This document shows, one piece after another, positions 11,059 to 64,000 of a stretch of 64,000 nt of DNA; the stretch's first letter is position 1, and each line of letters starts with the position of its first letter. The DNA lies in NCBI GenBank assembly GCA_012845835.1, contig JABAKD010000023.1, positions 15,124,702 to 15,188,701 on the forward strand, in the 5' to 3' direction. This DNA comes from Undaria pinnatifida (lineage: Eukaryota > Sar > Phaeophyceae > Laminariales > Alariaceae). Made by a program: the position numbers and the translations under genes. The notes under the pieces are model-generated. The model did not search any database. It was not told the origin of the DNA and saw only the letters and a program-made list of their open reading frames with translations.

Positions 11059-11146
11059 GACGAGGCCGGTTGATCAAGCCGCCCTCACAGTCTCGTCGAA
11101 CACAGTCCAGGGGGACGTACAGCAGTCGACCGATAGCGCTATAGCG

Positions 11147-38900: not shown

Positions 38901-41347
38901 TTCCCCCTATGGACACAACGGCCTTCTTCCCTCCCAGGTCAACATAAACTCTCCCTAACTTTTTATCTGATTTACATTTAGTTTCACGAGCAATTCCTTT
39001 TCTAATTGCCTTCGACATCGAACATCCCGTACAAGCATCTAGGCTACCAGTCAACTTGATACCCAGTCGCTTTGCAGTAGTACAAAGCAATCCTTCATGT
39101 GAGTGAGCATAAATGTTATGAAAGTCATTCACACCCATACTCGTTTCGTGCTTGGGGTCTGAAGGAGTGAGGGCAGCCAACACGGATCCAATAGAGTCAT
39201 CACCCACACGATACGCAGTCGCAACAAGCATGCCATCGAAATTCTCAAAAGTCGCATGTCCGTGGAAAGCAGTCATCACACCACGAGGACCACCAAGACC
39301 ATTCCATGACTCGCCATCAAATTCTGCGCTGGGGGAAAAAGGTTGTACCCCAATTTAGGACAGTACAGCACATTCTTCAACTCTACCAAAAACTCGTTGT
39401 CAGCAGACACGAACACCAATTCCAGAGTTCCTGAAAGAGCTACCTCACAAGTCACGCCACCAATTCCCTTTACATTCTTGTGGCAAGGCTTCACATCCTT
39501 CATACACGAGAGAGAATCTGTCATGTGGAAAGCGGTACCTGTGTCTGCATACCAATCTTCGAAACGCCTCTTCTTGGTGAGAGTGGCATATTCACGAATA
39601 GAATCACGAATAACACGATCACTACCGACATAGTTCCTTATCCTGTCCGCCACTTCACTATACAACGTTGGAATATCAGCACCATAAGAATTTACCCAAT
39701 TCACCAGTACAGAGTCATACCACGATGCAAGATACGTGTCATCACTCCAATCGTTTGAGAGATTTTGGGACAAAACACCATGGTATCATTCCAGGTATCC
39801 CTCAGGTCCGAGTCAGTTTGGGACAGAAGCACTAACAACTCAGATATCTCACCGTTTTCATCCTTGGCGTCCTTGGATGATCCGGTCTGGGAGGGATGAG
39901 CGATCACACGAGCCAGGCAATCCTTCTTCACGTGACCGACCTCCCCACACTTGAAACACTTCCCTTGAAACGCCGTTTTCTTAGATGAATCAGACTCGGA
40001 GTTAGACCTTGACTTGTAGTTCTGCTTCTTCGCATTCTTGTTCTCTGGCCTAGACATCAGAGCAACACTGTGTTTCTTCGGACCACCTTGAGTCTGCAAG
40101 TCGAGGTACCGTTCACGCACTTTAGTCTCTATGAACGACGGGTCATTTGGGCAGAACACCACCAGAGTTTCACGCAGAGTCTTATATTCATGCGACAGCC
40201 CCTCGAGCATCAGGTTGCACACCTCTCTGTCATCTTTCTTGACTTCCAGCATTTGAAGCACACCAAGCGTCTCTCTCACAGATGCAAAGAAGATCGAGGG
40301 ATTCTCATTCGAACGCATGCGCAGTGATTTGAGTTTCTCCTCCTGCACACGAATCTGACTCTGGCTCAACGGCAGAAAATGATCTTTCAGCACTCGAAAA
40401 CCCTTGCTGGAAGAACCAGCGTGGCGAACCATAGTTTTCAGACTATCCTTCTTCAAGCAGTCGAACAGAAACCACCATGCCATCTCAGCCTGACGCAGCA
40501 CACCCACACTGAATCCTTTCTCTACCCAGGGGGTCGAGTCGAAACCACTGTCAGCAATCGGAATCTCAGTCTCGGAAACAAACGCCTCATACAGATTGTT
40601 GTGCCGGGCACTTAGCACAAATTCTGCGACCATGAGGGGTAAGACACGTCTGTCCCATCGAAAACAGGAGCCTTGGGAACTTTGAAAGGACCCCCACCCA
40701 ACTTCTCTCCTGTATCAGTAATGCCAGCCCCACGAATCAGATTGTTTCTACTGGCGACAATTTCCCACCACCTGCTCGACGGAGTAGGTTCGCGAGGAAC
40801 AGAGGACTGGCTTCCGAGAGCCCTACCTAGAGTCCTGGGAACGAAAGACTGGCTACCTACAGCCCCATTTCCAATCCCAATCGAACCAAAGCTTGCAGCA
40901 CCAGCAGAGGAACGACTAACAGCGAATACATTAGGGTTCAAGCCTGAGCCAGCAAGGCTACTACTCCCAACCCCCATGCTGGACACGTCAAGGCCTTGGG
41001 CATCGCCGCCCGTACCTCCCGCGGTCCTGCCAGTATCATCATCGGTAGAATGCGTACCACCCGCATACTCTGTTCCGCCGCCTCCCGGTGCGACAGCAGA
41101 CACAGAGGACTCCACTTGCTCCTTCTGTTGATCAACAAGCGACGTGACTAGAGTCGTAAGTTGGGACCACTGCGTCTCTAGGGAAACCATCATCTCACCA
41201 ACTTCCTGCGGATTACTCTGAATTCGGCCACCCGCAGGTGTCCCCGGTTCAGCCATGATGAGACAGGTTGATCAGGCCTCTCTCGTACAGCAGTCTAGTG
41301 TAGTCCAAGGGGACGACGAAGCAGTAGACACCTTTGACGCTATAGCG

Positions 41348-46795: not shown

Positions 46796-48545
46796 AAGGA
46801 GGGTTCACGCCCACCTGTTACCGCTTGTGCGGGGAAGGATTCGCTTGCCCACTTGAGAGGATTATGGCTCGTTAAGTAGGAAAATGGTCTCAAACTCGAC
46901 AAGTTCGATATGTCTGAGAGGGTGACTAACTTTTTCGCGAGCTGATTTGAATTGTTTCTTGACGGATTATTCTGTATATATATTAGCTGGAATTTAGTAC
47001 TTATATGAGTGCATGGTAGAGAGGGAGGCAAGTAACTGTTTCTTGACTTTTGAAAAATTACTTATTCACGATTGCGTTGTCCAGCATGACCTGGTTTTGC
47101 CTTTGATTTGAGCATTTGGAATCTGAACGGATTTTTAGTATGTACCCAGCCGGGAGGCGTTTGTCTAATTCGAAAGTGAATTTTGAGACTGCTGTCCGAT
47201 CACGCTTGTTGGCACCCCTGTTCTATGGAGCTGACAACCGTTTTATAAGGAAGGCTGAGTTTTTGGATTTTTGGAATTTGAATTTTAGATTTGAGTTTTC
47301 GGTCCATGAATTTCGGATTTGAGCTTTTGTTTTTGGACTTGAGATTTTACGACTTAGATCTTAGGTTCGTGAAGATTGATGTTGGATACTGTCCCTGAAT
47401 TGTATCTCTACATTTATATAGTGCTTTTCAAGGACTATGGTGCTGCAATCTTTCTTTTTTGTCACAGTAGTACTGGGAGGATATCAATTGGCCGTGTTTT
47501 CGATGAAATCGTTTTACCCTGAGGATATGGCAACATAGCATCATACCGTATCATTTACGAAGCTGGGAGACTGTTGATTGTATGCTTGGATATGATGCCG
47601 ATATGATGACGGTTGAGTATTGTGTAGGGGTTTCCAGTGATAAGTTGGCTACATCGTAACGGTATATCGGGGTGGTGGAATGATTTTAGGTATTTCGCCG
47701 CCACTCCTCGTTGTGCTTCTTCTACCGAGTGAACCTTCTCCTTTCCACGCTGCGCCTTGGCTAGGAGCAACTATATATCTATTTGTACGTCTTATACTTG
47801 TCTTCATACCGATGACTCCACTACCCCACTGTTGTCAGCTCGACGGGTAAGCCCTGTACGCTTCGTAGGGATCAACAAACAGAAATCCAGTAAATATGGT
47901 CGATGTTTCGATCCAACAGTCTATACACACAGGAACGCAGTATTCCAAGGACTATCAAACCTACAAGACTATGGAGGTAAACACACATTCAGGCGAGGCA
48001 CACGAGTGCATTTTGGTTGTCGGCTGACTTACAGCAGCAGCTGTATGTAGTGTAATACCTGGAACGTACGAGTCCAGTGACATTGAGCGCTGTAAAAAGA
48101 GTAGGTACGCGCTGTCACAGATCGACCTCAAAACACATACCAGGTATGTTACTCCGCACAAAGGCACTACAGCAGTGCTGTTAGCTACGTGGTGAGCTCA
48201 CATGGCATAACCACGTGGTTACTGTGAGGAAAGAGCGTCAGGGCCGGCAACAGCCAGCGCGCACAGCGTGGCAGTGTGAAATTAAGGATGGGAGGACACA
48301 GAGTGCCCCCTGCAGGTCTGCCAATTGAGCAGGTCTTCGGAGAGTACTCACTTTCGTTCCTTCGTAGAGATGTAGCTTTATTCGTTTCCACCAGAGCCCG
48401 GGATAGCTTCTGAGATCGGAGGCGCGTGCCTCCGATCTAATTCTTAACTTCCCCGAATAGAAACCGCCAACCTTATCATACGAAACCCATTCAAATGATC
48501 TCAAATTCGGATACCTACAGGCCTTTCGAGGCCGTATCTTAACAC
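46796..48545. other. No gene recognised
   Basis: Short frames only. Near 47255-47370 lies a degenerate TTTGGATTTTGGAATTTGAG-type simple repeat. Near 48395-48440 GAGGCGCGTGCCTC forms a short perfect palindrome. Confidence 0.5.
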
Positions 48546-48690
48546 TAGCCCACCCTGATGAGTCGCATATGCAGAAATATGGGATTTCGGGGAAACTCCG
48601 GTTCTACGAACTAAACCATGAGTCGAAGATGCGGCTCCTCAAACCCCACTCCCACACCTCTAACCGTCTGGCTATGGAGCCAGGAACACG
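48546..48690 (+). repeat. Short dispersed repeat shared with 62180-62330
   Basis: Both places share TAACA(C/T)TAGCCCACCCTGA, AGTCG(C/T)A(T/G)ATGCAG and TCGAAGATGCGGCT in the same order. Confidence 0.5.
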
Positions 48691-48756
48691 CGAAGAAAAG
48701 CAGTAGAAAGAAAAGCATGCCCTACAGCAAGGCAATAGTCACCCATCAAAAACCTA

Positions 48757-48846
48757 CCGCATGCCGCCGGGGTGGCGGGGGGGGCAGAAAAGGCTCTAGA
48801 ACCTGCCGCATGCCGCCGGTGTGGCGGGGGGGGCAGGAAAGGCTCT
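48757..48846 (+). repeat. 45-bp tandem pair
   Basis: CCGCATGCCGCCGG.GTGGCGGGG to AGGCTCT occurs twice in tandem. Confidence 0.8.
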
Positions 48847-49399
48847 GCGGTAAACCAACCACAGAAAAAGTACTATGGCGCGAGCCCTCGTCGATATGGA
48901 GGGGAACGCAGGCGCTAACACAAGGGAGAAGTCATGCGAAAAACCTCCCGCGGGCCATTGGCAAGGCGGGGGGTTAGACGAGGAAACGACGAATACCCGG
49001 GATGGAAGTTGTCGACACATACTGCCCCGCTAGGGGAGGGAGTATTTAGACGACAAAAAAAAAACAAAGCAGAACAAATACAACACACAAAACATAAAAG
49101 AAGACACACAGACCCGTACACTGGTCGCCCCCCGGCTCTGGGCTGAGGAGGGCGTCGGCAGGGCGAATTTGAACTATGACAAAAAGACGGCAACCCTGCG
49201 CCTCAGATAGCGGCGTTTTTCCCGAACCCTGACCCGGCACTGAGCAGGGGGTTCTGCAGGACAGAAAAAAAATGGAAAGAACCGCCCCAAAACTCGATGA
49301 AGACCCTCAGGACACTACAAACGACCCAAAGACAAAGACGCAAAACTCATACCTCAAAAAAATGAAGAACTATCGAGAAGCGGTGGTGGCTTGGAAGTC
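48847..49399. other. No gene recognised
   Basis: Short frames and an A-run. This is the presumed downstream flank of the Ty3 element; I could not find an LTR here. Confidence 0.4.
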
Positions 49400-51886
49400 A
49401 ACTGGCCACGGCCGCGCCTCGAGATTCGTCTACGTTACGTTGGATTCCCCGAGGAAACGCACTGGCGATGTGAACTTGCCAGCACCAAGAACCTCGTACG
49501 GCTCCCGTTGAAGTCGTGTAGCGCGCCGGGGGAAGAGGGAGTTTAATCGGTCCCGGGTCGTCCAGAAAGCGGACCAGGTATACCTTGTCCTCGGTAGTGC
49601 TCGCGATGATTTTTCCTAGCCACCATAAACCATCGTCTCCCTTGCACCAAAAGTGGGCTCCCTTAGGAAGTATGGTGTCGTGGTAGCGACGGAGCTAATC
49701 GGTGCGGGAAACACAGGCGTAGCCCGGCGCTAGGAAACGTTCCCCGTTGTTGCGGGAGAGCTCACGCTGTGCCGCCCCGATCCGCATTCGGCGGTAAAGA
49801 CGGTTGGTTTGGCGGTGCTGGTCCGGGGTTCCGGCCCAATAACGCAAGATATGGAAGCGGGAGAGGTGAAGGTTCATTTCCCGCTCCCAGGACGGTTCGG
49901 AGAGTCCCGCCCAATGCGTCTTGTATAGCACCGCGATGACGCCACCTCGCCCCCGTACCGACTGATGACCAGTGATCTGCTCCACCTCCAGCCGTTGGAG
50001 GGGAGTCGAAACGTCGTCTTGAGTGACGTGGTACGGCGGGGACTTCTTAGAAAATTTGCTGAGCACATACTGTGTCAGCCCCGCCGGTAGGTGTTTGGGC
50101 ATGTCCCCGCTGTCGTGGGGGTTGGCACAGGGTTTGCAGCGCTCAATAGCCACACGCCGACGAGCGTCCGAACCAGGCAGGTCGGAAGGGAGATCCAAAT
50201 AAAGGAGGTTGCTCCCGAGCGGCGAGCCGTCCGGGGTCTCGGCGGCGGAGCAGGGACCGACGGCCAGGACCTTGTATGGGCCCGTCCAGTTAAGCGCGAG
50301 TTTGGCCTTGAGTACCTTGGCGTCGGTATTCGCTTTCACACCCTGGCGGATGGTAGAGGCAGAATTGTATACCCATGCCCAACCACCCACAGTGAAGTTA
50401 GGTGCTGGACGCAGCGCGTCGGCGAGGGCGGAGTTTCTGCGGTTAACACGGGAAACGGTGAGGGCGTGGTGTGCGCGGACAATGTCGTTCGCGCGCTTTT
50501 GCCGGTCGGTGGCCAAATCGCAATAGGCCAGGTGGTCACGGGCCAGACTCTGGTATCCCACGACACCTTTGCGGTCGAAAATCGTCAGGGGGAGCCGTGG
50601 GAGTCTGCCCATGTGGACCTCGTTGGGCGCCAAACCCGTCGCCGCGCTGACAGAGTTGTTGTAAGCGAATTCGACGTGGGGCAGATGCAAGTCCCAGTCG
50701 TCTTGTCGCTCGTTGACAACCATAGCCAGCATTTGTGCAATAGTGTGATTTACCCGCTCAACGCCCCCGTTACAGTTGGGATGGTAGGAGCTTGTAGCAA
50801 GCTTGTGTACACCTAACAGCTGATATACAGCTTGTGAAAGCTTGGAGCAGAACTGCAGTCCGTTGTCCGAGAGTATGGTGCGCGGGCACCCCCACAAGGG
50901 GATGTATTGGTTCACCAGGATATTGGCTGTACCTTCCGCGGTGAACTCAGCGGCAGTGACTGGGAACATGTCGGCCCGACGACTGAAGCGATCGGTGAAC
51001 AGCAGGATGTAGGTGTTGCCTCGTGGTGTGACCGGAAGGGGGCCGGAGTAGTCAACACTGACGGCGATACCTGGACCTTCCGGCAGAGGCATTGTGATGA
51101 TGGGCCAGCGGACAGTCAGCCGTGGGGTTTTCCGCGCTTGGCACTTCAAGCAGTGGCGAAGCCACCACCGGGTGCACACACTCATGTCAATCCACCAATA
51201 AAATGCTCCAGCATGCGCAACGTGCGCGTGGTGCCAAGGTGGCGGGAGGCCGTCGAATGGCAAGCTTGCATGATCCAAGGGCGCATGAGCAGGGGAACGT
51301 AGATGCGAACTGGCTCGTCGTTTAGCAAGCAAGCAGCTCGCCCCACAGAGTTCGGTTTGTCAGAGCTTGTTGGCGGGAGTGTCGGGTTACGGACGAGTAG
51401 GACAAAGTCGTCGTCGGTTGTATGTAGTCGACCCTTACCCGCCAGCTCCTGGATGTCTGAGAGGGAGGGACGCTTGTGCGAGAGGTAGCACGCCAAAAAG
51501 TCGGGCGGCAGGACCGATGGCCGGCCGATAGAAACGTAACGCATCATGGCGTGGCACGTCGGCTCAGCGTGCTGCTCTCGCTTCCAATCGCCATGTGAGT
51601 AACGTGCGGCGGAATCAGCGAAACGCAATTCATCAGCGTTGCGAAGGGCGTTCGCCCTTGTATATGCGGTCGGCGTGCCACCAGGAGAAGGCGTGAGCCG
51701 TAAGAGAGGAGTTCCCATATAGGCTCTGCGTGGTCGCGGTCGGACGGTAGTGGCACCGTGCGGACCGGCGAGTCGACAAGAGCAGGGGTCGCGGCGGCGA
51801 CGGGATCGGCTGCGGCCGTGGAACTCGCGACGGGGTTGTACTTCGTCCGCGAGATGGCCGAGGGGCCCCGCCGGGCCCGAATCCAT
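49400..51886 (-). CDS. Ty3 integrase with chromodomain and Tudor-like tail
   Basis: Part of the broken Ty3 element. An HHCC zinc-binding module (CHSTASRHLGTTRTLRML, then CLKCQARK) precedes the catalytic core (VSVDYSGPL, ILSDNGLQFCS, NGGVERVN). The GPY-type region (LNWTGPYKVLAVGPCS) is followed by a chromodomain (RLEVEQITGHQ, YKTHWAGLSEPSWEREMNL). A further module follows with GLWWLGKI and VYLVRFLDDPGPIKLPL, which has the W..GKI....Y.VRFLDD pattern of Tudor-like folds. Chromodomains in chromoviruses steer integration to marked chromatin; the second module may do the same. Confidence 0.85.
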
Positions 51887-52297
51887 AATCTACAGCGGGG
51901 GTGAATTACCCGTTGTTATCGCTGTTCGTCGGCGCGTTGTCGACGACGGAGGGGCTGGAGTGCCAAGCATGGCGGAGACGGACACAGTCGAACCGGTGGT
52001 CGCGGCGGGGGCCGTCTCCTGTAAAGAACTCCGGGATAGATAAGTCGGCTGTGCGATGGGCGTCGCTGCAGCCAGGGCTTCTGCGGAGCCCGTGCCGCCC
52101 TCGATGGGTATGGCAAAAACCGAAGCAAAAACAGTATCGGCGGCAGGTGAAATCGACCCGCGGCCGGTACAGCCTTCGGTAGTGGCGACGGAGGCAGAAA
52201 TACGAGCGACGAATCTCCCCGGGGAAACAGAAAGGCCGTCAATTCTTATACGTGGCTCGTGTGTGCGAAAATCGTGAAACGCGGTAGAGGTGAGAGG

Positions 52298-52425
52298 GAG
52301 CCCACCCAAGGCAGCATGTTCAGTGCGGGGCACGAGCCCACCCAAGACAGTGCTTTCGGTGTGGGGCACGAGCCCACCCAAGACAGTGCTTTTGGCGAGG
52401 GGCGCGAGTCCACCCGAACCGACTC
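52298..52425 (-). repeat. 36-bp tandem repeat in the Ty3 spacer
   Basis: Four units starting at 52298, 52334, 52370 and 52406 (GAGCCCACCCAAG...), exactly 12 codons each. They lie between the RNase H and integrase parts and read as STVLGGLVP-type repeats on the minus strand. Confidence 0.85.
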
Positions 52426-52589
52426 CTGGGATCGGCGAGGGGGGAGCGCGCAGCCCGCGGGTCCGTTGGAGGTAGATACCGCTATCTCCAACGGGGTTGG
52501 GGCTTGTCAACCCCACGAGGTTGAATTTTTTTCAAGCCACTGCGGTCGTACTCCATAGCAGGCTCTGGAAAACGGGCCGGAAAAATCGG

Positions 52590-52975
52590 CGATGCCCTTG
52601 TCGCTGCCTTTGCGGTACTCGAGTGTGCAATCGAACGCGGTGACGAACTCAAGCTACCGCTGGGCTCGTGCATTGAGGGTCCCCACTTTGCCAATGCTCC
52701 CCTATGTATTGTGGCCGGAGGATATGTGGAACTTTGTTCCCCTCAGTATCCTCGGAGGCGTTTGGGAACCCAAGCAATGCTGCAGGTCCCCAAATCTAGA
52801 GGAGTCCAGTGCCTCTCCGAGTCGAGCGTTGCTCGACTGATATACGCGATTTTCATAGTGAACGAAACGTCGTCCAGCGTCACAGTACCCTCGACGAAAC
52901 AGGGGCAGTGTTCTGACATCGCAAGGTCAGGGCCGACGCTAGAAGCTATTTCCACAACTTCACGGCTTTTCATTG
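52590..52975 (-). CDS. Ty3 RNase H part
   Basis: Part of the broken Ty3 element. The minus strand reads IAYISRATLDSERHWTPLDL, SIAWVPKRLRGYLWG and later LEYRKGSDKGIAD. These correspond to the Ty3 RNase H blocks I.YASR.L...E..Y, W....R.YL.G and I.YR.G..N..AD. Confidence 0.7.
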
Positions 52976-54001
52976 GCCAACGCGCCCGAGAAATAGGTCG
53001 GAAACGCCGAAGGGGAAGCTTTGCGAGCGCTGGCCGCTGTGAACGGTCCGGTTGCGGCGCGGACGAGATTTCTTGGTTCGTGCGCTCGCAGTGCAGGTGC
53101 GGAACCGACTAGGGGAGGCCGGGTGCGCCGACCCGGTCTCATTGTCGCAAATAGCTGCGCGAACGGCAGAAAGTGCCTCACTGAGCAAGTTTTTTCCTCC
53201 CCCCTGGCATGGGTTGTTGGCCCTGGGACCATCCGCCCGGAGACCCATGCCCCACACTGGGTTCAGAGGGCTGGATACAGCCAGAAGCTTGTTGTCAGAG
53301 CTCAAAAGGTGATTTTTTTTTATGGCTGGATTCTGCGTGAATTTGGCGTAGGTGCCAGGTGACACGGCGTTTTGCTCCTCCCTGTCCCCAACAGCGGAGT
53401 CAAAGTTGCGCACGCCTCGACCGATGCGTTTGCGTGTGCTTGGACGAGGCGACGACATAATGAGCCCCACTGCTCGATGGTCTTGCAAAAACTTGGTCTT
53501 TTCGGCCATCATGTACTGCTCCGCGCAAGAATATGGTACGTCGTCCACGGCAAACGACGAAGGAGACCACGGTGGGAAATAGGATGGGGGCTGCCAGAAT
53601 AACACCACTTTAGCTGTGGAGTATTCGAGAGAAGGGTCAAAATCCGTGTTGAAATTTGGGCCTGCAATGTCCCCGTCCAGGAGCATCAGGTCTCGGGAGC
53701 ACGACGCGAATACGAACCCGTGGTATTTCGCCTCGGGTCTTTTTTTCGCTCGTTGGCGGAAAAGCGCGAGAATACGCTCTAACTGCGCCCGAAAAATGGC
53801 CAAAACCGACGGTGCCAACCCGTCGGTAGCCTCGTTGGACATTTGTGGGTCTGCATCTGTCCTCGGCTCTTTGGGCCTGTAGTGTCCCCTTGCGGGAGCA
53901 CCAGGCGACGGGAGCAAGATGCGAGTCCGAATCTGGGGTTTCTCGCCTCGGGTCCTCTTCACTCGCTGGCGGAAACTCGTAAAAAGCCGCCCTCGCTGCA
54001 C
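52970..54001 (-). CDS. NADAR-domain protein lying between Ty3 gag and RNase H
   Basis: A 343-codon minus-strand frame carries a NADAR domain at about residues 133-295 (about 53117-53605). It opens with VVLFWQPPSYFPPW then SPSSFAVDDVPYSC. Next come AEQYMMAEKTKFLQD, KRIGRGVRNFD and YAKFTQNPAIKKNHLL. The end reads SPLNPVWGMGLRADGP then GKNLLSEALSAVR. NADAR (YbiA-like) proteins cleave N-glycosidic bonds of ribose derivatives, including ADP-ribose adducts on nucleobases in some members. The fold order is complete, but some usually conserved positions differ, so activity cannot be assumed. The first ~130 residues are built from a ~225-bp tandem repeat. The domain occupies the place where the Ty3 reverse transcriptase is expected. 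It may be a captured host gene, a separate insertion or a passenger from a large DNA virus. Met at 54001 is the first in frame, and the true start is unknown. Confidence 0.8.
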   Translation of the reverse strand: MQRGRLFTSFRQRVKRTRGEKPQIRTRILLPSPGAPARGHYRPKEPRTDADPQMSNEATDGLAPSVLAIFRAQLERILALFRQRAKKRPEAKYHGFVFASCSRDLMLLDGDIAGPNFNTDFDPSLEYSTAKVVLFWQPPSYFPPWSPSSFAVDDVPYSCAEQYMMAEKTKFLQDHRAVGLIMSSPRPSTRKRIGRGVRNFDSAVGDREEQNAVSPGTYAKFTQNPAIKKNHLLSSDNKLLAVSSPLNPVWGMGLRADGPRANNPCQGGGKNLLSEALSAVRAAICDNETGSAHPASPSRFRTCTASARTKKSRPRRNRTVHSGQRSQSFPFGVSDLFLGRVGQ

Positions 54002-54260
54002 CCGAAAAAGAGTCCAACACCGACGGTGCCAACCCGTCGGTAGCCTCGTTGGGCATTTGGGTCTGCAATGTCCCCCTCTGGGAACACCAGTCCTCGGCCC
54101 TTTGGGCCTGTAGTGTCCCCCTCAGGAACACCAGGCCTCGGGAGCACGACGCGAGTCCGAACTCACGGTTTCTCGCGCCGTGGCCTCTTCGCTCTTTGGC
54201 GTATAATCGCAAGAAAACTGCTCTAACTGCACCCGAAGGGGCAGGGGCTCTGAGCTGTTT
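53662..54260 (-). repeat. 217-231-bp tandem repeat upstream of NADAR
   Basis: About 2.6 units start at 53662, 53879 and 54110 (GTGTCCCC...), sharing CGGGAGCA(C/A)GACGCGA, CGACGGTGCCAACCCGTCGG and GTAGCCTCGTTGG. They code in different frames in successive copies. CGACGGTGCCAACCCGTCGG is itself a near-palindrome (CCGACGG / CCGTCGG type). Confidence 0.8.
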
Positions 54261-54289
54261 CTGCTTGACGAGAGGCACGATTCTTCCGT

Positions 54290-55190
54290 AAAATTACGGG
54301 AATAGCGTCCAGCTGATCAGGCTGGAGGCCGTGGAGTCACCACTGGCCCGTCGCGCAGTGTCGGATCTTCTTCCTGTGCCACTGGGGCAGACGTAGCCTG
54401 AAATACGTGGGTTAGCGTGTTAAAAGACGAAGCAGGGTCTGTAAACCCTGTGGGCGTCTTCTGGAGCGGGGCTCGGGCAAGGCAATATTATTTTTACCCG
54501 AGGAGGCTCTCTTCCGTTATGTCTCTTGGAGGAGAGAGACGAGGTAGCTAAGCTTGTCGGCTCCTTCTTGATGGGAAAAAGGATAGAGCGCCCGCTACTA
54601 TCGCGAGGAGACACCGACTCAAATCTTGGAAAAGATCTCGGTGCATATGGGTTGGCTTTCCCACACCTCAAGCCAACCGCCGCTTTACGGTCAGGAAGAG
54701 GTGGAGACGAACCCGCTCGCGTATGGGGGCGACGCGTCGTCGCCGCAGTTTTCTTGCTGCGCGACGCGTGCCTGAGGGGAGCGTGCAAGGTGCAGGCTCC
54801 TGAGTCATGGTTAAGGGGGGCAGCGTTAGGGGCGCGTGCCTCCGTTGTCGAGCTTGAGCCACGGCAGGGGTTAACGGCGTCGGAAGCACTGGTCCCCATT
54901 GCCGAACTCGGACCATGATCGAGGGGGGCGTCACTGTGGGCGCGCACCCCCTTCGTAGAAAATGTAACCTGGCTGGGGGGGGGCATACTGGGAGCCCTGG
55001 TCCCCACCGCCGGCACTGCGCCGTGAAAGTCATCAGGCGACGTAGGAGCCCTTGGGCTCTTGACAGAAGTAATTTGTGCCGCGCCACGTGTAAGGCGAAC
55101 GACAGGCACACGAGCATCTTGTGAAATCAAAGGAAGTGTCCCCGACAGTGCCGTCGGCGTACGGGTCGGGTGTGCCGTACCGCCGTCGCC
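54290..55190 (-). other. Spacer between gag and the NADAR segment
   Basis: A Pro/Ser/Ala-rich minus-strand frame (54420-55130) without recognised domains. It may be the gag-pol linker of the Ty3 element. I see no protease motif. Confidence 0.5.
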
Positions 55191-55530
55191 CTGTCAGTTG
55201 CCAGTGCGAAAGGTACCTGGTTGGCGCGCGTTGGGGTTTCCGCTCGGATTGTGGGTTGCCCCGAAACGTTTCCCCGGAGCAGACACGGAAGCCGAGGAGG
55301 CTGGCGAGGGCGGGACAGCACCTTGTTGGCCAGGCGTGTATGTGCTGTTGTTGTTACCGCTGTGGCTGTTTGTCTGTCCCTGATCCCGTGGGTACCCTCG
55401 TGATTGTTTTGAACGATTTCGGCGATTTTTGTTGTACGTTTGCGAGCGAGAAGAGCGTCCGTCGCGGCGGTAGCTAACCATACGTGCTTGCCACCGTCGG
55501 AAAACGTCATCATCGCCAAGTTGGCCAAGT

Positions 55531-58272
55531 TCAGGGTTTATAACAGCCGCTGGCGTTGATAAAGGGATGCCTACAGTTGCGTAAGGAATGAGTGTCTTCG
55601 TGACAGTTGAGGCAATGACCCCTGTTTTCTCGGAGAGCCGCGGCGCGGGCAGAGGGCGTGAGGAGGCCGCTCCAGAGGGGAGGGTCGTCGGTCTTAAACG
55701 AGGCACTAACAGCGAAAACTTCTGCATAGTGTTGTTCTTCTAGGGGCCAGCAGTTGGACATTTTGTCGAGCCAGGGGTCGGTGGAAGCAACAATCGGCAT
55801 GACAATCGGATTATTGCTCGAACCCGTCTGCCAAGAAGGCGACTGGGACAGCACTCGGCCCTGGCCGCGCCCATGAATGGCGGGCCGGGGCCCCGACGGG
55901 GCGGATGACCGCGATCCCGTCGAAGAAACAGGTAGAGAAAAATGTTTTTCGCCGTTGACGGCAGGTGTCTTATTGTGCGCCAAGTCACTGAACGCTTTCC
56001 ACATGGCATCTAACGAGGCGTATGGCCGTGGGTCCGTAGCCTTCGAGCCAGGGTATAACGTAGGCATGAGCGTCGGAAACTGCTCGTTGACCGCCATCCT
56101 AACCACCTCCAGCACGACATCCGTCCCCGGGGACAAAACACGATCACTCCCCGTGACTGCCGATACTAGCACACGGAACTCCCGACTGAAATCAGAAAAA
56201 GGCGTGCCATTACACACTCCAAAAGTATGCAACTTAGTGTAGCCTTCGCCCGTGTCGACCCGGTCAAAATGCGTCACGAGCAGGCGTAGCAGGAGGGTGA
56301 AAGCCTCGGGCCCAGATGCTCCTCCGTCCAACGCTCTTGACACCTGTCCAAAACAATCGTCGATCAAGGTGGTCATGCGAGCGGTCGTGGGCCTGTCAGG
56401 TGTTATGGCACGGTTGAATGCCAGGCGGAGGGGGCGGATCCAACCGGGAACCCACGTGGGGGCACGTACACCCTCTTGGCAACGGTCGTCACAGCGCATG
56501 AGTATGTCAGTCATGGCAAACCGAACCGAACGTGTGAGTTGCTGTGTGCCGTCAGACTTGTTCAAAGAGGCGGGGAACGGTAGCACAGAAATGCGTGATA
56601 CGTCCTTGTGGGAGAGCTTAACATAGGCGCGCCTAACCGAGTCATCAAGCGTGGATTTAGCTAGAGCCGCGGCGGTAGCAAGTTCGGCGGTACGCTCGCG
56701 AGCCAAATCCGAAGAAACAGGCTTGGTGTGGTCACCCGACACAGTTAGTTTGCTCAGCCGGTCGGCGGACGAGGCAATATCCACCAGGGAAGGAGTTACT
56801 TGCCTCCTGCCAGCTACCACGGTCACCTCGCCGTGGTCCGTGTTCGAGCTCGAAGACGAGCGGGAGGACGTTGACGACTCGTCCCACGCTGAGGGCCCTC
56901 GTGTGCTGTTTTGCCGTCCTCCGGTGCCTCCTCCCGAGCTGCGACGGCCGCCCCGGTTGGTTCGGGCCTGGTTGCTCCCTTGGCGGCGCTGTGGGCCACC
57001 ACCCGTACCCGACGCTCCTCCCGCGCTTCCGCCACCGTTGCCACCACCGCGGCGGTTGTGGTGGCCACCACTCCCACCGTTTTCCCCGTTTCCCCCACTC
57101 TGGCCGCCACCACCCCCGGAGTTGCCACCTCCACGGTTGCGGTCCCCCCGATCACGGCTGCCACCGCGCCGCTGTTTGGTGGAGCGCCTTCCTCCCAGCG
57201 CTTCCTTTGGAGTCGGCCACAGGACTGGGTCAGGGGCGTCGTCGTGGGCCAATCTTAAGGCTTTGACCAAAGCGAGGGTAGGTGCTCGCCTCATCTGCCC
57301 GAAGGCGGACGAGTTGTCCCGGCGAGCCCAGACTGCTCCGACCGAAAGGTCTTCCGCCTTGAACGACGACCGTCGCTCTGAAGATAGAAGGGCCTTGGCC
57401 GCTGCTATCACCGCCTCCGCCAGATGCGCCGAGAACTCGACCCTCGGCGTGGTAGCCATGTACTGGACGCTGCCAGACATGAAAACGTCGTCCCGGGGTC
57501 GTGTATCTTGGGAGGCAACACTCAGCGGGCGCGCCGAGGAAGGGGCAGCTCTCGCCGGAGTCGATGTAGCTGAGAGGGCAACGGCTTGGCGTGCCCTCTC
57601 GACCGCGCGGGATGCCTCACGAGCAGCGGTCCTCGCCTGGTCGATGGCGTGATCCTCACGGCGTCGACGTTCGTCATCTAGCCGTTTGCGTTCCTCTCTT
57701 CGAAGCAGGGTCGCGTTGGCTTCGTCGAGAGCTCTTTGGGCCCGAGAAATTTCAGACTCTGAGTCTGAGGGGCCAGCATGGGAGCGCTGGTCTCCGTAGC
57801 TCTGGGGAAGGCGCTCTGTCGAGCGCGGAGAGGTCAGATGTCGACGGTGGTGCTCTGAGGACAGCTGGAGATGCTCCCTCGAGGCTGGGGATATTTGTCG
57901 TCGTGATGTCTCCGCGCCCGGTAGGAGTTTTTCCGCCTCGTCGACCGGCGAGTCGGGGTGGTCAGACGGTGTGCCGTGTTGTTGACTCGTGTTGGAGTCA
58001 CTATCGTCGTCCAGGTTTTCGGCGCGTCCTCCTCGTCTCGATTCGCGGGACCTCGAGCGTTCCCGTCCTTCTCCCTGGGCCTCCTGGATGGGGCGCGTGG
58101 AGGACCGCAGCCTGCCCGAGTAGCCCCCATCGTCACTGGTGGACATGGTGCCTAGGTGTAGTGAAGGGGGGGGGGTAGGAACGACGCGTGAAGAAGCTAT
58201 TGAGACAGATGAATTGTTGTGGTGTTCCTGCTCCAAGGAGCGGTATATCTGTGTTTCAGCAAACAGCAACAA
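55531..58272 (-). CDS. Ty3 gag-like protein
   Basis: A long minus-strand frame upstream of the pol parts. The N-terminus is Arg/Ser/Glu-rich, and a Met at about 58147 (MSTSDDGGYSG) is a likelier start than the first Met at 58272. A Gly-rich, RGG-like stretch lies in the middle (NRGGGNSGGG, HHNRRGGGNGGG). A gag-type helical region follows (FGQVSRALDGG, LLRLLVTHFDRVDTGEGYTK). The C-terminal knuckle is CLNCHEDTHSLRNC. It is larger than typical Ty3 gags because of the RGG-like and charged regions. Confidence 0.7.
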   Translation of the reverse strand: MLLFAETQIYRSLEQEHHNNSSVSIASSRVVPTPPPSLHLGTMSTSDDGGYSGRLRSSTRPIQEAQGEGRERSRSRESRRGGRAENLDDDSDSNTSQQHGTPSDHPDSPVDEAEKLLPGAETSRRQISPASREHLQLSSEHHRRHLTSPRSTERLPQSYGDQRSHAGPSDSESEISRAQRALDEANATLLRREERKRLDDERRRREDHAIDQARTAAREASRAVERARQAVALSATSTPARAAPSSARPLSVASQDTRPRDDVFMSGSVQYMATTPRVEFSAHLAEAVIAAAKALLSSERRSSFKAEDLSVGAVWARRDNSSAFGQMRRAPTLALVKALRLAHDDAPDPVLWPTPKEALGGRRSTKQRRGGSRDRGDRNRGGGNSGGGGGQSGGNGENGGSGGHHNRRGGGNGGGSAGGASGTGGGPQRRQGSNQARTNRGGRRSSGGGTGGRQNSTRGPSAWDESSTSSRSSSSSNTDHGEVTVVAGRRQVTPSLVDIASSADRLSKLTVSGDHTKPVSSDLARERTAELATAAALAKSTLDDSVRRAYVKLSHKDVSRISVLPFPASLNKSDGTQQLTRSVRFAMTDILMRCDDRCQEGVRAPTWVPGWIRPLRLAFNRAITPDRPTTARMTTLIDDCFGQVSRALDGGASGPEAFTLLLRLLVTHFDRVDTGEGYTKLHTFGVCNGTPFSDFSREFRVLVSAVTGSDRVLSPGTDVVLEVVRMAVNEQFPTLMPTLYPGSKATDPRPYASLDAMWKAFSDLAHNKTPAVNGEKHFSLPVSSTGSRSSAPSGPRPAIHGRGQGRVLSQSPSWQTGSSNNPIVMPIVASTDPWLDKMSNCWPLEEQHYAEVFAVSASFKTDDPPLWSGLLTPSARAAALRENRGHCLNCHEDTHSLRNCRHPFINASGCYKP

Positions 58273-58329
58273 TATGGGCCTTAACGCCGTCCAGCCTTAG
58301 TGATGGTAGCAGCCACGTCAACTAGCCGT

Positions 58330-59260
58330 ATAAGAGGAGTACAGCAGTAACAAGGTACCAATCATCATAACCGCAACATAAGAGCAGCGCCCAGTCTGAC
58401 CGTAGGGTATATGGGTAACGCCCGCACGAACCGCAGTACAAGGAGCCAAAACTGGGCATCACTGACTCCAACCGCAGTGCAGGGGGTGCAACACAGTAAG
58501 GGTACGTCTGCAGCCATCGCACTAAAACAGGCATCATTCGACCTAGGCGGGGGGAGGTAGCACAGGAGAGCGTCGCCCAAAACGCCCACGCTCATCGGAC
58601 CAAAACGGGCAGCATTTACCCTAGGTGTAGTGTAGGGGTTGTCACAAAAAAGGTTCGCCGAACACGCCGACGCTCATCGCACCAAAACAGGCAGCATTTA
58701 CCCTAGGTGTAGTGTAGGGGTGGAGCACAGTGTAAGCTCGTCCAACACGCTGACACTCAGCGCACCAAAACGGGCAGCACTTAACCTAGGTGTAGTGTAG
58801 GGGGGGAGCACAGTGAAAGGTCACCCAACACGCTGACACTCGTCGCACCAAAACAGGCAGCATTCAACCTAGGTGTAGTGTGGGGGTGGAAGCACAGTGT
58901 AAGATCGCCCAACACGCTGACACTCATCGCACCAAAACGGGCAGCATTTACCCTAGGTGTAGTGCAGGGGTGGAAGCACAGTGTAAGATCGCCCAACACG
59001 CTGACACTCATCGCACCAAAACGGGCAACATTTACCCTAGGTGTAGTGTAGGGGGGGGAGCACAGTGAAAAGTCACCCAACACGCTGACACTCGTCGCAC
59101 CAAAACGGGCAGCATTTACCCTAGGTGTAGTGTAGAGGGGGAGCACAGTGAAAGATCGCGCAGCCAACCGTGTAAAAATGGGCAGCATCTGCCCCCACAG
59201 CAGTAGTGTGGTGGGGGGTAGGACAGTATACGTTCGCGCACCAACCGTATATAAAAAAAA
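58330..59260 (-). repeat. 83-bp tandem array upstream of gag
   Basis: About ten units anchored on (G)CACCAAAAC at 58521, 58599, 58681, 58764, 58847, 58931, 59015 and 59099, with weaker units at both ends. Spacing is 78-84 bp, tightest in the middle. Each holds CCCTAGGTGTAGTG and CAACACGCTGACACTC. A fragment of the unit (GCCTAGGTGTAGTG) also sits at the likely gag start near 58151, linking the array to the element's leader. Apparent long frames here are repeat artefacts. Confidence 0.85.
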
Positions 59261-61085
59261 AAAAAAAAACAGCAACGCACCAACCGCCAGCGGAAGAAAT
59301 CCCACCGCGTTTTAGGGGCTGTCAGCACCTTTCCCCGAGGTAAAGGAGATATATTAGCGCTCTTTGATTCGAATACCCTCGGTGTAATGCAGGAACTACA
59401 CAACCACACGGTCGTCACAATGGCATTCCCCGATTTCCATACTTTTGATATTCACATCAACCGACCGATGTGGCGTCGGAGGGCTTAGATTTATATAGGT
59501 CAGCTATTTCCACTTGGCACAAAAATATGAGCAAATCATGCCCGCAAGAGGTTGGCAAGCTTGACGGAGGTGGACCCGGCAAGAGGTGATCCCCTCGAAC
59601 CGGGGGGGGGGTAGAATGACGATATAACTGGATTAGGCCGCGTACCCGGGTAGTAACGGATAGGAACTTTGGGATAAAAGAGAGGGGGAGTTTGGATATA
59701 GTCCAAAAACTCTTAGGAAGTTGTGTGCTTTGATAAAAATAATCACGCATCTAGTCTATAGCAACAAGGAGGGAGACAGACAGGAGCCCAATCTGCATGG
59801 TGGGTAGACAATAAGTGACGCTAAAACATTGAGAGCCATGGCCGGTACCTGATCGGCGGGTATCGACACATTATGAGAATTTGTTCTGCATAGATTGGCG
59901 GATGCCCCAAAAACGCCCTTTCCCTGCCCGCCGTGCACGAAACGTGTTCATAATGGGCATCATCAAGGAAAGGCAATGCTTTTGTAGTAAGCTGGGGGAA
60001 TTTATAATCGTGTAAGTGGCAACACGACCCTAACGTCTTGGAGAAGCTGAGTTGGAGAGGTGAGACACAGCCTGAATATGACCCTAGTTAAGCAAACGGG
60101 TTCGTTTAGCGGGTGCGTAGTTTTCTAACGGCAGGTGGAGACCTACCGTCGAAAAACTCAAAAATGTACAGGCGCAAGCAAATCCCGCACTATCCAAGTC
60201 AAAGACAGAACAAAAAGAGCTGTCGATTACAGGATGGCTATCTCATTTTCTTGGCCGAACCTTATACAGTTCGGCCAAAGAAGGCCGGCAAGTCCAAGGT
60301 GTTCACTAGACCGCAGGGGCGAGGTTAACACCAAGTCTGTGTTTTGCAGATGGATAAAAACTGGTACACAAACGAAAGTTTATGGAGGTCAAGCTTTTTT
60401 ACCCGGATCACCAGGAAGATCTAAAAAACAAATAAATAATAATAATCCTAGATAATCAGGTCTAGATAATAGCCTAGAAGGCGGCTCAACATAGGAGCGA
60501 AATGTTCCAGGAAAAAAGTTATTTTGAAAAATAATATTCAGGCGTCGTGAGTACCATCTACCGAGTGGAAAAGTCTACTGGGATGGATGGCCAAACCGCC
60601 TCGGTTGAATTTGCGATGCACGCGGTGTATCTTCTCTACCTCGTGGTTTGTGGCCGCAGAGCCTTAATGTCCTAGTCTCCTGCTCAGATAAGGCATCGGC
60701 ACGGACATTGATGGGGTGTGCTATGGGCGTCAACGAGTGGGAAGAACACACGCCAAGCGCTCGCTCGTACCATGTTCCGTTTGCGTATAGTATATCGACC
60801 CTCTCTTCTCTAAAACATACTTAAAATCCGACTATATTATCGGCTAGATCCTTCTTATTATGGCGCGGTGATAAGGTATTATATATAGTCTATATGATCG
60901 TTCTTTCTTTTTGGATTCGGTCAGGAGTTGTTTTCGTCTCGACCTCAGCATGGGTTGCTCGGAACTGGATTTCTCGGCCAAATCGCTTCGTTCAAGCGCC
61001 GTCTTCGGGGGGCGGCTCCAACGCCCCTCGCCCTGCCTTATCCGTCGCGGTGAGAAGGTATTATATATTATAAAAAATTAACATA
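59261..61085. other. No gene recognised
   Basis: A frame at 60113-60455 has no recognisable domain. A hairpin lies at 60251-60278. Two copies of a CGCGGTGA(T/G)AAGGTATTATATAT motif occur near 60863 and 61047. Confidence 0.5.
60251..60278. repeat. Perfect hairpin TTGGCCGAAC/GTTCGGCCAA
   Basis: A 10-bp stem with loop CTTATACA, extendable by three pairs past one bulged A (TTC...GAA). Confidence 0.8.
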
Positions 61086-61570
61086 CACTCCAGCTGTGAG
61101 ATCGAATACTTTGTCGAAACTCATCTTTGCAAGCTGTGTGTGATACTCCGATCGCGCGTATTACGGGTTGTGTGTCCTCATTAAGGATATAGGTCGGCGA
61201 CTCCCCTTGCAACTACAGTGTAGCTATCAGGGCCAACAGGGTGATGTTAGTCAGTCTGTGCGCGGAAACTATAAAGCCCGTTTCTGAGGGGGACAAAATC
61301 TGACAGCCGTGGAAGGAAATGCATCAGCTTATCAAGTGATACTGTAAGCCGACTAACCGGTGAGGGGAGGGCGGAGGTTTTAAGGACGTGGGGGCCTGAT
61401 TTTGATCAAAAGGGGGGCGGGAGGGCGGGAGGGGGGGAGGGGGGGGGGAGGGGGTGGGTGGGAATTGCAGCAGCGGCATGGACGGCTCTGAAACGATAAC
61501 GAGGCGATATCCAGGGCGTGGAAGTGTTTATTACTCTGGCGGATTTCGATAGTAGGTGGGGCGTTTAAGC
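61086..61570 (+). repeat. Dispersed repeat, copy 2 (see 22663-23340)
   Basis: Matches copy 1 nearly base for base over its first ~330 bp and its last ~115 bp, with a shorter G-rich middle. Confidence 0.75.
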
Positions 61571-61842
61571 AAGAGAGGGCAAGGAGAAAAAAAAATGTAT
61601 ATATATAATATGTGGTGGTACTCCGAGTGGGGGATGCGTGGTTGGTCGGTGTTGGGAAGCGTGCTCCTCATGGGTTCCGGTGCCCTTGTTTGGTCTCTCC
61701 TCATGGCTCGCTGGATAGACTCAAAAGCTTATACATTATTTCCTCTACATGGAACTCTGAAAGACAGACAACACAGGCCCTTGGCACACGGTAGTGCAGG
61801 GCAGAATAAGTAGAGCTGATAGAGCTGGTAGAGCAGGTAGTG

Positions 61843-61904
61843 AGAGCACGGGGGTGGGGTGAAGCTCACAGAGTTCGCTTCACCCCAGCATTGCTACTGT
61901 GCTC
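61843..61904. repeat. Two-step hairpin
   Basis: An inner stem GGGGTGAAGC/GCTTCACCCC (61856-61865 with 61877-61886, 11-nt loop) and an outer stem GAGAGCAC/GTGCTCTC, separated by unpaired sides. Confidence 0.75.
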
Positions 61905-62179
61905 TCTTCCGGACCTTTACCTATGGAACGTACAAGGAACGTTCTCCTGGATGTCCTAATGTTCCCATGAGCGCTTAACGCGCTTACTTCTATCTATCTT
62001 GTCCAGAGGAGGAACGTTCCATTTCCGAGAACGCTCTTGTGGTACAAACTAGCTAGATTCTACGGGTTATCCGCTCACTCAGAATGTTCCGTTTAAGAGA
62101 ACCTTCTTGTGGCCAATAGACCATGAATCTGCGGACTATCCTACCGAATCTATTGCCAGCTATACTGACACTCTATAAC

Positions 62180-62330
62180 ATTAGCCCACCCTGAATAGTC
62201 GTAGATGCAGATCACCTGCCCATTAAATGATGTCAACAAAACATCAAAAATTGGGAGGGGGATCGAAGATGCGGCTATTCGAAACAAACGAAAATGAGGC
62301 TATAGATTCCCCCACACCTCGTAATAATGA
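62180..62330 (+). repeat. Short dispersed repeat shared with 48546-48690
   Basis: Contains TAACATTAGCCCACCCTGA, AGTCGTAGATGCAG and TCGAAGATGCGGCT in the order seen at 48546. Confidence 0.5.
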
Positions 62331-62640
62331 GGCTTAAACGCCTCATTGCAAGATATACAACCCTATGATGGAGCTCACAACCGTGAGAGCTCGAAAAAGG
62401 GTATGTACCTACGGTATACCAGTAGCAATCGGCCTACGAAAACACGAAGGGCGTGGCCACTGAGCGCAAGGATGCGAAGGGGGCCAAAGAAGAAGGTATA
62501 GACGCGGAAATCAAGTCAGAAGAGAAGAAGGGAACACGTGTCGCGCTGTGGAGGCCAGACGAGTTTACGGCCTGAAGCGTAGTGCCGAAGGGGCGGGCGG
62601 TCGGTCCATTTGCCGGAAGACAAGAGAGAAATAAAGGAAC

Positions 62641-64000
62641 ACTGCCTAACAGAACATCAGAGTCCGCTACGTTGGACATGGACACCTGACGTGGGGCCAT
62701 CGCTTGGACGGTGAAAGAGAAACAACCAAGACGCGAAGAAGTACGCAAGCGTCGGGCCATTAATCGAAAGGCAGAAGAGAAAGAGCCTGAAGCAAGAGAA
62801 AACAAAAAACAGTGCCTAAAATAATGCCAGGGTCCGCAAGGTTGGACCTGGGAGGCTGACGTGGGACCATTGGTCGAAAGGCAAAACTATCAATAACCAG
62901 TACGCTGATGTGTAACGGAAGCACAGGGGCCGTAATGTGGGACCTAGGAGGCTAGCATAAGGCCCTTGGTCGAACTGTAGAACGGGAAACCGAGGCTACC
63001 AAAACAAATCGCGAAAACGCAGTGAAAGACAACACCGTAGTGAAATACAACACCTAAACAGTGGCACAGACAACACCAAAATGATGGTACTGGAGGCGTG
63101 TGTGATACGCCGGAAAGCTTAACCGGGGGGCAACAGTGGAGTACCCTTGAAAGCTATCTGGGTACAGTGCCATGAAAACGGGAAGAAATATGTGGTGAAG
63201 TCACCTAGCCAAAGCTATGCGCAAACAAGGACGAAACTGAAACGTAGACACCAGAAAGACGGAAGGCACTATCGGAAGCCGGAAAGAGAGTCGACATATG
63301 ACACCTTGAGAGGGTAACTAATAACGGGAACAATGCCAGCAAACGTAGCGAGGCTATTCAACCATAACAAAGCAAGCCAAAAACGGGGTCAACACGAGGA
63401 TACTCGTTCAGCTCGAAGCAGCGCTGAAAGTGTCTAGATCCAAAAAGAATGCAGGGAACAGAGAAGACAATATGAAGAAAAGCCGCAGCTGGGTACTATA
63501 CGTCGGGAACGCGGGGTCGCTAACGTGGAGCAACCCTAAAAAGGTAACCGAGAAAAATGCAGGGAAAAACAGGAAATAGGCAAATCGTGTCATAGCAACG
63601 TGCTGCAGCCTGACAAAAAGAAGGGTCCATAGCAAAGGACCTTGAAAGGCTACTTTCAGAAAACGAGCAACACTAGGTACGTAGCGAAGGTATACCTCCG
63701 AAAGCGATTTCGCCGGAAAAAAAAAAACAACACGAAAGGGGGTCAACAGGGAACGACCTATATGGGCTGCGAAGCCAAACTGGAGTCGAAACGTGGGCCC
63801 GATGCGACAAGTACGCCAACAAGCCAAGAGCAAAACGGGGGCCAAGAGGGGATGACCTGTGGACTGCACAGTCAGGACGGGCTGTAAACCCATGATTAAG
63901 GCCGGTGTAGTTGAACCCTATTGGCAGGTATGCCGAAAAGAAACAAGAAAAAGTGGTCGAGAGAAACAAAACCTGTTGGCTGCAAAGCCAGGACGGGGGT
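62641..64000. repeat. Degenerate long-period repeats
   Basis: Phrases like GTCCGC(A/T)A(G/C)GTTGGAC, GGGAGGCTGACGTGGGACCAT and GGTCGAAAGGCA recur near 62655, 62825 and 62925. Near 63840 and 63965 the phrase ACCTGT(T/G)G(G/A)CTGCA(A/C)AGCCAGGACGGG type recurs. The sequence is A/G-rich on + and has no convincing gene. It runs to the window edge. Confidence 0.5.

What the first reader, a model, noticed from the sequence alone, without database searches (positions are those of the whole stretch)
52970..54290. NADAR domain embedded between gag and RNase H of a Ty3/gypsy element
A complete-looking NADAR fold (AEQYMMAEK, GRGVRNFD, KFTQNP, VWGMGL, GKNLLSEAL) lies in the same orientation as the flanking Ty3 gag and RNase H, where reverse transcriptase would be expected. 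NADAR enzymes act on ADP-ribose and related N-glycosides. I do not recall a Ty3 element carrying one. It may be cargo of a retroelement lineage, a gene dropped into it, or a relic from a large DNA virus.
Basis: partly seen in the sequence, partly recalled or inferred. Interest (0 to 1): 0.85.

Follow-up and report, generated by a model that had tools for sequence, protein, structure and literature searches.

The report
ADP-ribose enzyme inside kelp retrotransposon
A jumping gene of a farmed kelp carries, as a built-in part of its own protein, an enzyme domain of a kind that strips ADP-ribose off DNA or RNA; this architecture was published in 2025 for another brown alga, and the copy in this window is a shortened one whose enzyme looks dead.

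Summary
The NADAR domain is real (window 53150-53599, minus; E 3.4e-30). It belongs to a Ty3/gypsy lineage. In autonomous copies of two subfamilies the order is Gag - UGA - [NADAR - protease - RT - RNase H - integrase], so NADAR precedes the protease; it does not replace RT. The genome is almost certainly Undaria pinnatifida. The architecture is already published for Ectocarpus (PMC12477816). Added here: (1) the window copy is a mosaic from an RT-less derivative whose deletion junction is shared by 39 other scored places; its NADAR has W89G, R93E, E125V and D130N. (2) The best-scoring autonomous copies keep the YbiA-type active site (27 of 30, plus the second subfamily). (3) One RT-less copy has 98.9% identical LTRs and a 4-bp target-site repeat, so such copies moved in trans. 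(4) Gag and Pol share one frame across a single UGA. Most likely work: an ADP-ribosyl-hydrolase made with Gag-Pol that clears ADP-ribose from the element's nucleic acid. That function is inferred, not shown.

The parts
48275..48544 (-). 3' LTR of the RT-less family (TG...CA); no second LTR of this type found in the window
   Evidence: blastn match to both LTRs of RT-less copy L069 (96.3-96.5%), ends read; no repeat of it in window 54001-64000
49695..51359 (-). integrase frame: part of H2C2 zinc finger, rve core, weak C-terminal chromodomain-like match
   Evidence: Pfam rve E 2.1e-7 (31.5 bits, cut-off 32.6), H2C2 E 0.0052; Chromo E 0.014, under its cut-off
51182..51889 (-). frame with the first half of the integrase H2C2 finger (in another frame than the rest)
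   Evidence: Pfam E 0.04
52371..52850 (-). stretch from inside RNase H onward, 71% identical to L033 7168-7622
   Evidence: blastn; RNase H of L033 by Pfam
52850..52856 (-). junction where protease, RT and first part of RNase H are missing (L033 5081-7167)
   Evidence: blastn; a query across it matches 40 of 40 scored places, this one included, over its full length
53150..53599 (-). NADAR domain, open frame, active site damaged (W89G, R93E, E125V, D130N)
   Evidence: Pfam PF08719 105.9 bits; residue table
52970..54121 (-). 383-codon frame that holds the NADAR domain
53655..54237 (-). three diverged copies of the Pol linker upstream of NADAR (53655-53793, 53795-54006, 54008-54237)
   Evidence: blastn of L031, L033 and L068
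54420..55193 (-). N-terminal part of the Pol frame, no Pfam match
   Evidence: same start as Pol of L031-L034
55194..55196 (-). single in-frame UGA between Gag and Pol
   Evidence: same site and context in L031-L034; a UGA at the corresponding place in L035 and L036
55531..58296 (-). Gag-like frame with zinc knuckle CX2CX4HX4C (read by eye); its C-terminal end continues in another frame, 55194-55739
   Evidence: 96% identical to L031 over 54008-58851; no Pfam match
58573..59159 (-). 84-bp tandem array (7 copies) on the 5' side
   Evidence: TRF; similar arrays in L031 and L033

Best explanation
A Ty3/gypsy lineage of brown algae took up a bacterial-type (YbiA-subfamily) NADAR domain and keeps it as the first recognisable domain of Pol, ahead of the protease. 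Gag and Pol lie in one frame across a single UGA, so NADAR is probably made as part of a low-abundance Gag-Pol readthrough protein, packaged in the particle and perhaps cut free by the neighbouring protease. There it most likely removes ADP-ribose from guanine bases (or a similar N-glycosidic ADP-ribose adduct) on the element's RNA or cDNA, protecting it from a host ADP-ribosyltransferase. The window copy is not a working example: it is a mosaic member of an RT-less derivative whose NADAR is dead and which moves with proteins supplied by autonomous copies. Shown: architecture, copy numbers as lower bounds, active-site conservation in the copies examined, its loss in the RT-less copies examined. 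Inferred: readthrough, packaging, hydrolase activity, protection, supply in trans.
For: Architecture: Pfam on pieces of Pol of two subfamilies, frames up to 2473 codons, protease motif ALLDTGSPQ after NADAR. Linkage: NADAR-RT offset 1968 in 31 and 2037 in 10 of the 59 paired copies. Constraint: Pol similarity between subfamilies starts at NADAR, the roughly 400 residues before it do not align; NADAR dN 0.535 with synonymous sites saturated. Active site: E43, K50, R79, W89, E125, D130, W133 (numbering of PMC11543638, passages read) are kept in L033 and L036; with K75 added, 27 of the 30 top-scoring copies, all of the L033 subfamily, keep all eight. Fold: AlphaFold2 pLDDT 94; best PDB match is the ADP-ribose-bound NADAR 8bau, TMq 0.85. 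Activity by homology: NADARs tested in PMC11543638 and PMC11125620 remove ADP-ribose from guanine (passages read). Readthrough: same-frame Gag-UGA-Pol in both subfamilies. RT-less family: junction query matches 40 of 40 scored places, full length, 97-100%; L069 has LTRs 98.9% identical with the 4-bp repeat CATA at both ends (read by eye).
Against: No biochemistry. The host enzyme that would attach ADP-ribose is not identified: DarT (PF14487) has 0 matches in the genome, and the PARP and macro-domain searches did not complete. NADARs from outside DarT operons tested in PMC11125620 hydrolyse guanine-ADP-ribose in vitro but do not protect cells efficiently from DarT1, so the true substrate may differ. 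RT-less copies moved without an own working NADAR, so it is not needed in cis. Among young copies of the L033 subfamily changes in NADAR are near neutral (17 synonymous, 29 replacement, 2 stops against 12.6, 33.5 and 1.8 expected under a rough model), so recent selection is not shown. The 30 copies in the residue table are the best profile scorers, which favours intact sites. NADAR differs more between subfamilies than RT does (dN 0.535 against 0.165). The retro NADARs form one group in only 50% of bootstrap trees, so two acquisitions are not excluded.
Confidence: 0.55

Rival explanations
1. NADAR processes the element's RNA in another way (RNA ends, RNA repair), as Dinatale et al. suggest for the Ectocarpus and oyster elements.
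For: Their stated suggestion (PMC12477816); NADARs accompany RNA-repair systems in viruses (PMC9503650, passages).
Against: Pfam at E up to 0.1 showed no RNA ligase, KptA-type or other repair domain in the Pol pieces scanned (the C-terminal ends of both Pol frames were not in hand); the active-site set is that of tested ADP-ribosyl-hydrolases.
Confidence: 0.2
2. NADAR degrades a soluble ADP-ribose or cyclic ADP-ribose signal of a host immune response, acting on the cell rather than on the element's nucleic acid.
For: Proposed for phage NADARs (PMC9503650, passages); action in trans fits RT-less copies with dead NADAR.
Against: Position inside Gag-Pol suggests delivery to the particle; the same paper prefers macromolecular targets for versions embedded in polyproteins of eukaryotic RNA viruses.
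Confidence: 0.15
3. The domain binds ADP-ribose or nucleic acid structurally and catalysis is irrelevant.
For: Young copies drift nearly neutrally.
Against: The catalytic residues are kept in two subfamilies whose NADARs are 49% identical.
Confidence: 0.08
4. One-off insertion of a host or giant-virus NADAR gene into a Ty3 element at this locus.
For: Only the look of the window itself.
Against: Many copies with near-fixed position in long open Pol frames, two subfamilies; junction shared by 39 other scored places.
Confidence: 0.01

Closest known systems
Gypsy-12_Ec32 and its lineage in Ectocarpus (Dinatale et al. 2025, PMC12477816)
   Same: [quoted passage not shown] bacterial affinity of the domain; putative C-terminal chromodomain on integrase (only weak matches here)
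   Different: Another alga. Here an RT-less derivative with a dead NADAR and a Gag-UGA-Pol junction are described; I saw neither in the parts read, and 'readthrough', 'stop codon' and 'Undaria' do not occur in its main text. Its sequences and supplements could not be compared.
Tx1 LINE ORF1 proteins of Crassostrea gigas
   Same: Retrotransposon with an apparent YbiA-family NADAR (as stated in PMC12477816)
   Different: LINE, domain in ORF1, called divergent there; not compared here
Phytophthora nicotianae NADAR (8bau) and E. coli YbiA (2b3w)
   Same: Fold (TMq 0.85 and 0.79); active-site residues of 8bau
   Different: Not part of a Pol protein; 28% and 25% identical in the structural alignment
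NADARs in polyproteins of animal RNA viruses (PMC9503650)
   Same: ADP-ribose-processing domain embedded in a polyprotein of an RNA-based replicator
   Different: Positive-strand RNA viruses, not retroelements; no sequence comparison made here

Membership tests
Ty3/gypsy LTR retrotransposon | Pol order PR-RT-RNase H-INT | tested here: met
   Autonomous relatives L033, L036; protease by motif, plus a weak Pfam match in L036 (E 0.072). In the window copy PR and RT are deleted.
Ty3/gypsy LTR retrotransposon | Paired LTRs and target-site duplication | tested here: inconclusive
   Met for RT-less copy L069 (269 bp, 98.9% identical, CATA on both sides). The window copy has one LTR of this type. LTRs of autonomous copies were not delimited.
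Ty3/gypsy LTR retrotransposon | RT phylogeny within Metaviridae | not tested
   Pfam RVT_1 only; no RT tree built.
NADAR superfamily, YbiA subfamily | NADAR profile and fold | tested here: met
NADAR superfamily, YbiA subfamily | Glutamate at the E125 position (aspartate in BC4488 type, histidine in phage type) | tested here: met
   E in L033, L036 and 29 of 30 top copies; V in the window copy
NADAR superfamily, YbiA subfamily | Guanine-ADP-ribose hydrolase activity | not testable with these tools
   Needs a bench assay
Dinatale et al. NADAR Gypsy lineage | NADAR at N-terminal region of Pol | tested here: met
Dinatale et al. NADAR Gypsy lineage | C-terminal chromodomain on integrase | tested here: inconclusive
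   PF00385 E 0.014 (window) and 0.029 (L069), both under the cut-off; no match in the L068 frame scanned (2 of 3).
Dinatale et al. NADAR Gypsy lineage | RT groups with Gypsy-12_Ec32 | not tested
   Ectocarpus sequences not held

The most novel reading that the evidence does not exclude
A retroelement-borne counter-defence enzyme: the packaged NADAR removes ADP-ribose that an unidentified host transferase puts on guanines of retroelement RNA or cDNA, so brown algae restrict retroelements by nucleic-acid ADP-ribosylation. RT-less derivatives with dead NADAR free-ride on the packaged enzyme of their autonomous relatives, which makes the enzyme a shared good in trans.
Probability: 0.3. Interest if true: 0.85.

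Novelty: new member of a known kind. Interest (0 to 1): 0.5.

Why it matters
What NADARs do across eukaryotes is an open question (stated in PMC11125620). A retrotransposon lineage that keeps an intact NADAR site in Pol in two diverged subfamilies, beside a derivative that lost it together with RT, gives a natural comparison for asking whether eukaryotic hosts use ADP-ribosylation against retroelements. The finding itself is ordinary in one respect: the architecture was reported in 2025 for Ectocarpus.

Tried and rejected
Rejected: NADAR in RT's place (RT is deleted in this copy). Rejected: one-off insertion. Not supported: a NADAR-free form of the family; of the 27 unpaired RT rows I fetched the 10 with frames of 1300 codons or more, tblastn (E 1e-5) found NADAR in 0 of 10, and each breaks off from the autonomous sequence at its own point; the other 17 were not examined. 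Not supported: a working NADAR in RT-less copies; judged by tblastn pieces, only the window's NADAR of 20 copies is open over its whole length, and of the 42 residues in which window and L033 differ 20 can be assigned, all 20 to the window side.

Led nowhere: SSU rRNA search for the species (RF01960, never answered); PARP (PF00644) and macro-domain (PF01661) searches of the genome (not completed); recent-selection test on young copies (near neutral); folding after the UGA (no control, not used); paper search on RT-less gypsy elements (listing only).

Full report
WHAT IS THERE. The frame 52970-54121 (minus) holds a NADAR domain at window 53150-53599: PF08719, 105.9 bits, E 3.4e-30. Upstream on the same strand lie Gag-like frames (55194-58296) and downstream integrase frames (49695-51889). 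Protease, RT and the first part of RNase H are absent: the blastn matches to L033 end at 5080 and resume at 7168, 6 bases apart in the window.

WHICH GENOME. The window lies in an assembly of 511,146,479 bases in 68 contigs. Contig C34 is 16,510,065 bases long, exactly the scaffold N50 printed in Table 1 of the Undaria pinnatifida genome paper (PMC7058681, passages read; scaffold total there 511,280,173). I take the species as Undaria pinnatifida; the rRNA check could not be run.

THE ELEMENT ELSEWHERE. The NADAR profile has 1454 candidate places in this genome; the 150 scored are all above the family cut-off, 22 of them in frames of over 2000 codons. Pfam on pieces of two Pol frames (L033, L036) gives NADAR, RVT_1, RNase H, H2C2 and rve in this order, with a protease-like ALLDTGSPQ motif after NADAR. 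The C-terminal ends of these two Pol frames (about 180 and 430 codons) were not in hand. The Gag frames of L031 and L036 have no Pfam match at E up to 0.1. An RT search gave 150 scored of 1637 candidates. I compared 86 of the 150 RT rows with 100 of the 150 NADAR rows: 59 RT rows have a NADAR 1.6-2.2 kb upstream on the same strand, at modal offsets 1968 (31 copies) and 2037 (10); of these 86 rows, all 22 RTs in frames of 2200 codons or more are paired, and 26 of 27 in frames of 1900 or more. Of the 27 unpaired rows I fetched the 10 with frames of 1300 codons or more: NADAR in 0 of 10, and each matches its own subfamily at 96-100% only up to a break point of its own, so they look truncated or rearranged. 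Copies are young: L031 and L032 are 99.9% identical over 7.5 kb.

GAG-POL JUNCTION. In L031-L034 and in L035-L036 Pol follows Gag in the same frame after a single UGA; the window has the same UGA at 55194-55196. This suggests stop-codon readthrough; it is an inference from the frame, and internal initiation is not excluded.

THE WINDOW COPY. It is a mosaic. Window 54008-58851 is 96% identical to the autonomous L031. Window 48275-54697 is 96.5% identical to RT-less copy L069, and 49835-54697 is 97-98% identical to L068. Its NADAR stretch is 77% identical to L033. The linker before NADAR is present in three diverged repeats. A query across the deletion junction matches 40 of 40 scored places (of 1064 candidates) over its full length at 97-100% (one is the window itself). 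So an RT-less derivative has spread. L069 shows that such copies are integrated elements: LTRs of 269 bp, in a blastn pair 98.9% identical, TG...CA ends and the 4-bp repeat CATA on both sides, read by eye. The window has one LTR of this type, 48275-48544.

NADAR IS DEAD IN THE RT-LESS COPIES EXAMINED. In the 19 other RT-less copies examined (L049-L067, 19 of the 39 places) the tblastn pieces show stops, frame changes or a short match in every one; the window's NADAR is the only one of 20 open over its whole length. I used the positions that contact or act on ADP-ribose in the P. nicotianae NADAR (E43, K50, R79, W89, R93, E125, D130, W133, with K75 near the site; PMC11543638, passages), placed on the 8bau letters by shifting the chain numbers by two, which fits all nine letters. 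The window has W89G, R93E, E125V and D130N, and all 6 RT-less rows aligned (window included, 6 of 20) have W89G. L033 and L036 keep E43, K50, K75, R79, W89, E125, D130 and W133 (R93 is K in L033, R in L036). Of the 30 best-scoring copies, all of the L033 subfamily, 27 keep these eight, L025, L027 and L029 have one change each, and L017 and L024 carry a stop inside the domain. These 30 were chosen by score, which favours intact sites. Of 42 residues that differ between window and L033, 20 can be assigned with L036 and two bacterial rows, all 20 to the window side; of 70 residues invariant in those three rows L033 keeps 58 and the window 44. dN/dS of window against L033 NADAR is 0.33, so part of the divergence may predate the loss.

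CONSTRAINT IN AUTONOMOUS COPIES. Between the subfamilies Pol similarity begins at NADAR; the roughly 400 residues before it do not align. NADAR is 49% identical, dN 0.535 with synonymous sites saturated; RT dN is 0.165. Within the L033 subfamily, distinct changes among 29 copies compared with a thirtieth are near a rough neutral expectation in NADAR and in its neighbours, as expected for drift after insertion; this does not support recent selection.

FOLD AND ORIGIN. AlphaFold2 on an alignment of 34 rows gives pLDDT 94; the best PDB matches are 8bau (TMq 0.85) and YbiA 2b3w (0.79), the only two with E under 0.001. In a tree of 75 rows (5 retro, 62 of the 80 bacterial loci, 6 of the 7 viral-contig loci, 2 PDB; 18 bacterial and 1 viral locus were not given), the retro NADARs fall in a branch (support 98/97) with Myxococcota, Planctomycetota, two Bacteroidota rows, one Hyphomonadaceae row and 5 of the 6 viral rows, away from the oomycete protein, whose branch is long; one origin for the retro rows is found in 50% of bootstrap trees. 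The best bacterial rows, Nannocystis and others, are 59-60% identical. Eukaryotic and giant-virus NADARs were not sought, apart from 8bau.

MECHANISM. NADARs tested in PMC11543638 and PMC11125620 hydrolyse guanine-linked ADP-ribose (passages). An intact YbiA-type site placed in Pol next to the protease fits an enzyme carried in the particle that cleans the element's RNA or cDNA. PMC9503650 makes a like case for macro and NADAR domains embedded in RNA-virus polyproteins (passages). A host transferase is not known: DarT gives 0 matches, PARP could not be searched. RT-less copies with dead NADAR, one of them with near-identical LTRs, imply that the activity, if needed, is supplied in trans.

RELATION TO WHAT IS KNOWN. 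PMC12477816 (abstract, passages and part 1 of 2 of section 5 read; [quoted passage not shown] The architecture is therefore known. In the listings of the searches made (NADAR with retrotransposon, 20 of 104 listed; NADAR with brown alga, 10 of 80 listed; NADAR domain with transpos, 4 of 4) I saw no other paper, by title or start of abstract, on NADAR in retrotransposons; the term 'nadar' matches word starts, so many of those hits may have nothing to do with the domain. The library holds open-licence papers only, and supplements could not be read. So that the RT-less derivative, its dead NADAR and the Gag-UGA-Pol arrangement are unreported is likely but not shown.

Noticed in passing
window 5872-11073 (-): Ty1/copia element with one 1733-codon frame: zinc knuckle, Pol_BBD, rve, RVT_2.
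   Followed up: partly
window 36031-40714 (-): Second copia element in several frames (zinc knuckle, rve, RVT_2).
   Followed up: partly
window 58573-59159: Seven copies of an 84-bp tandem repeat on the 5' side of the Ty3 element, also present in L031 and L033.
   Followed up: no
L038, L043: Two copies 98-99% identical to the autonomous sequence that break off about 520 bases downstream of NADAR, 8 bases apart (L033 5321 and 5313); deletions, insertions of something else, or assembly joins.
   Followed up: no
L070-L076 (viral contigs of 22-462 kb): NADARs 46-51% identical to the kelp element's domain; the surroundings of L072 and L075 look phage-like by eye.
   Followed up: partly
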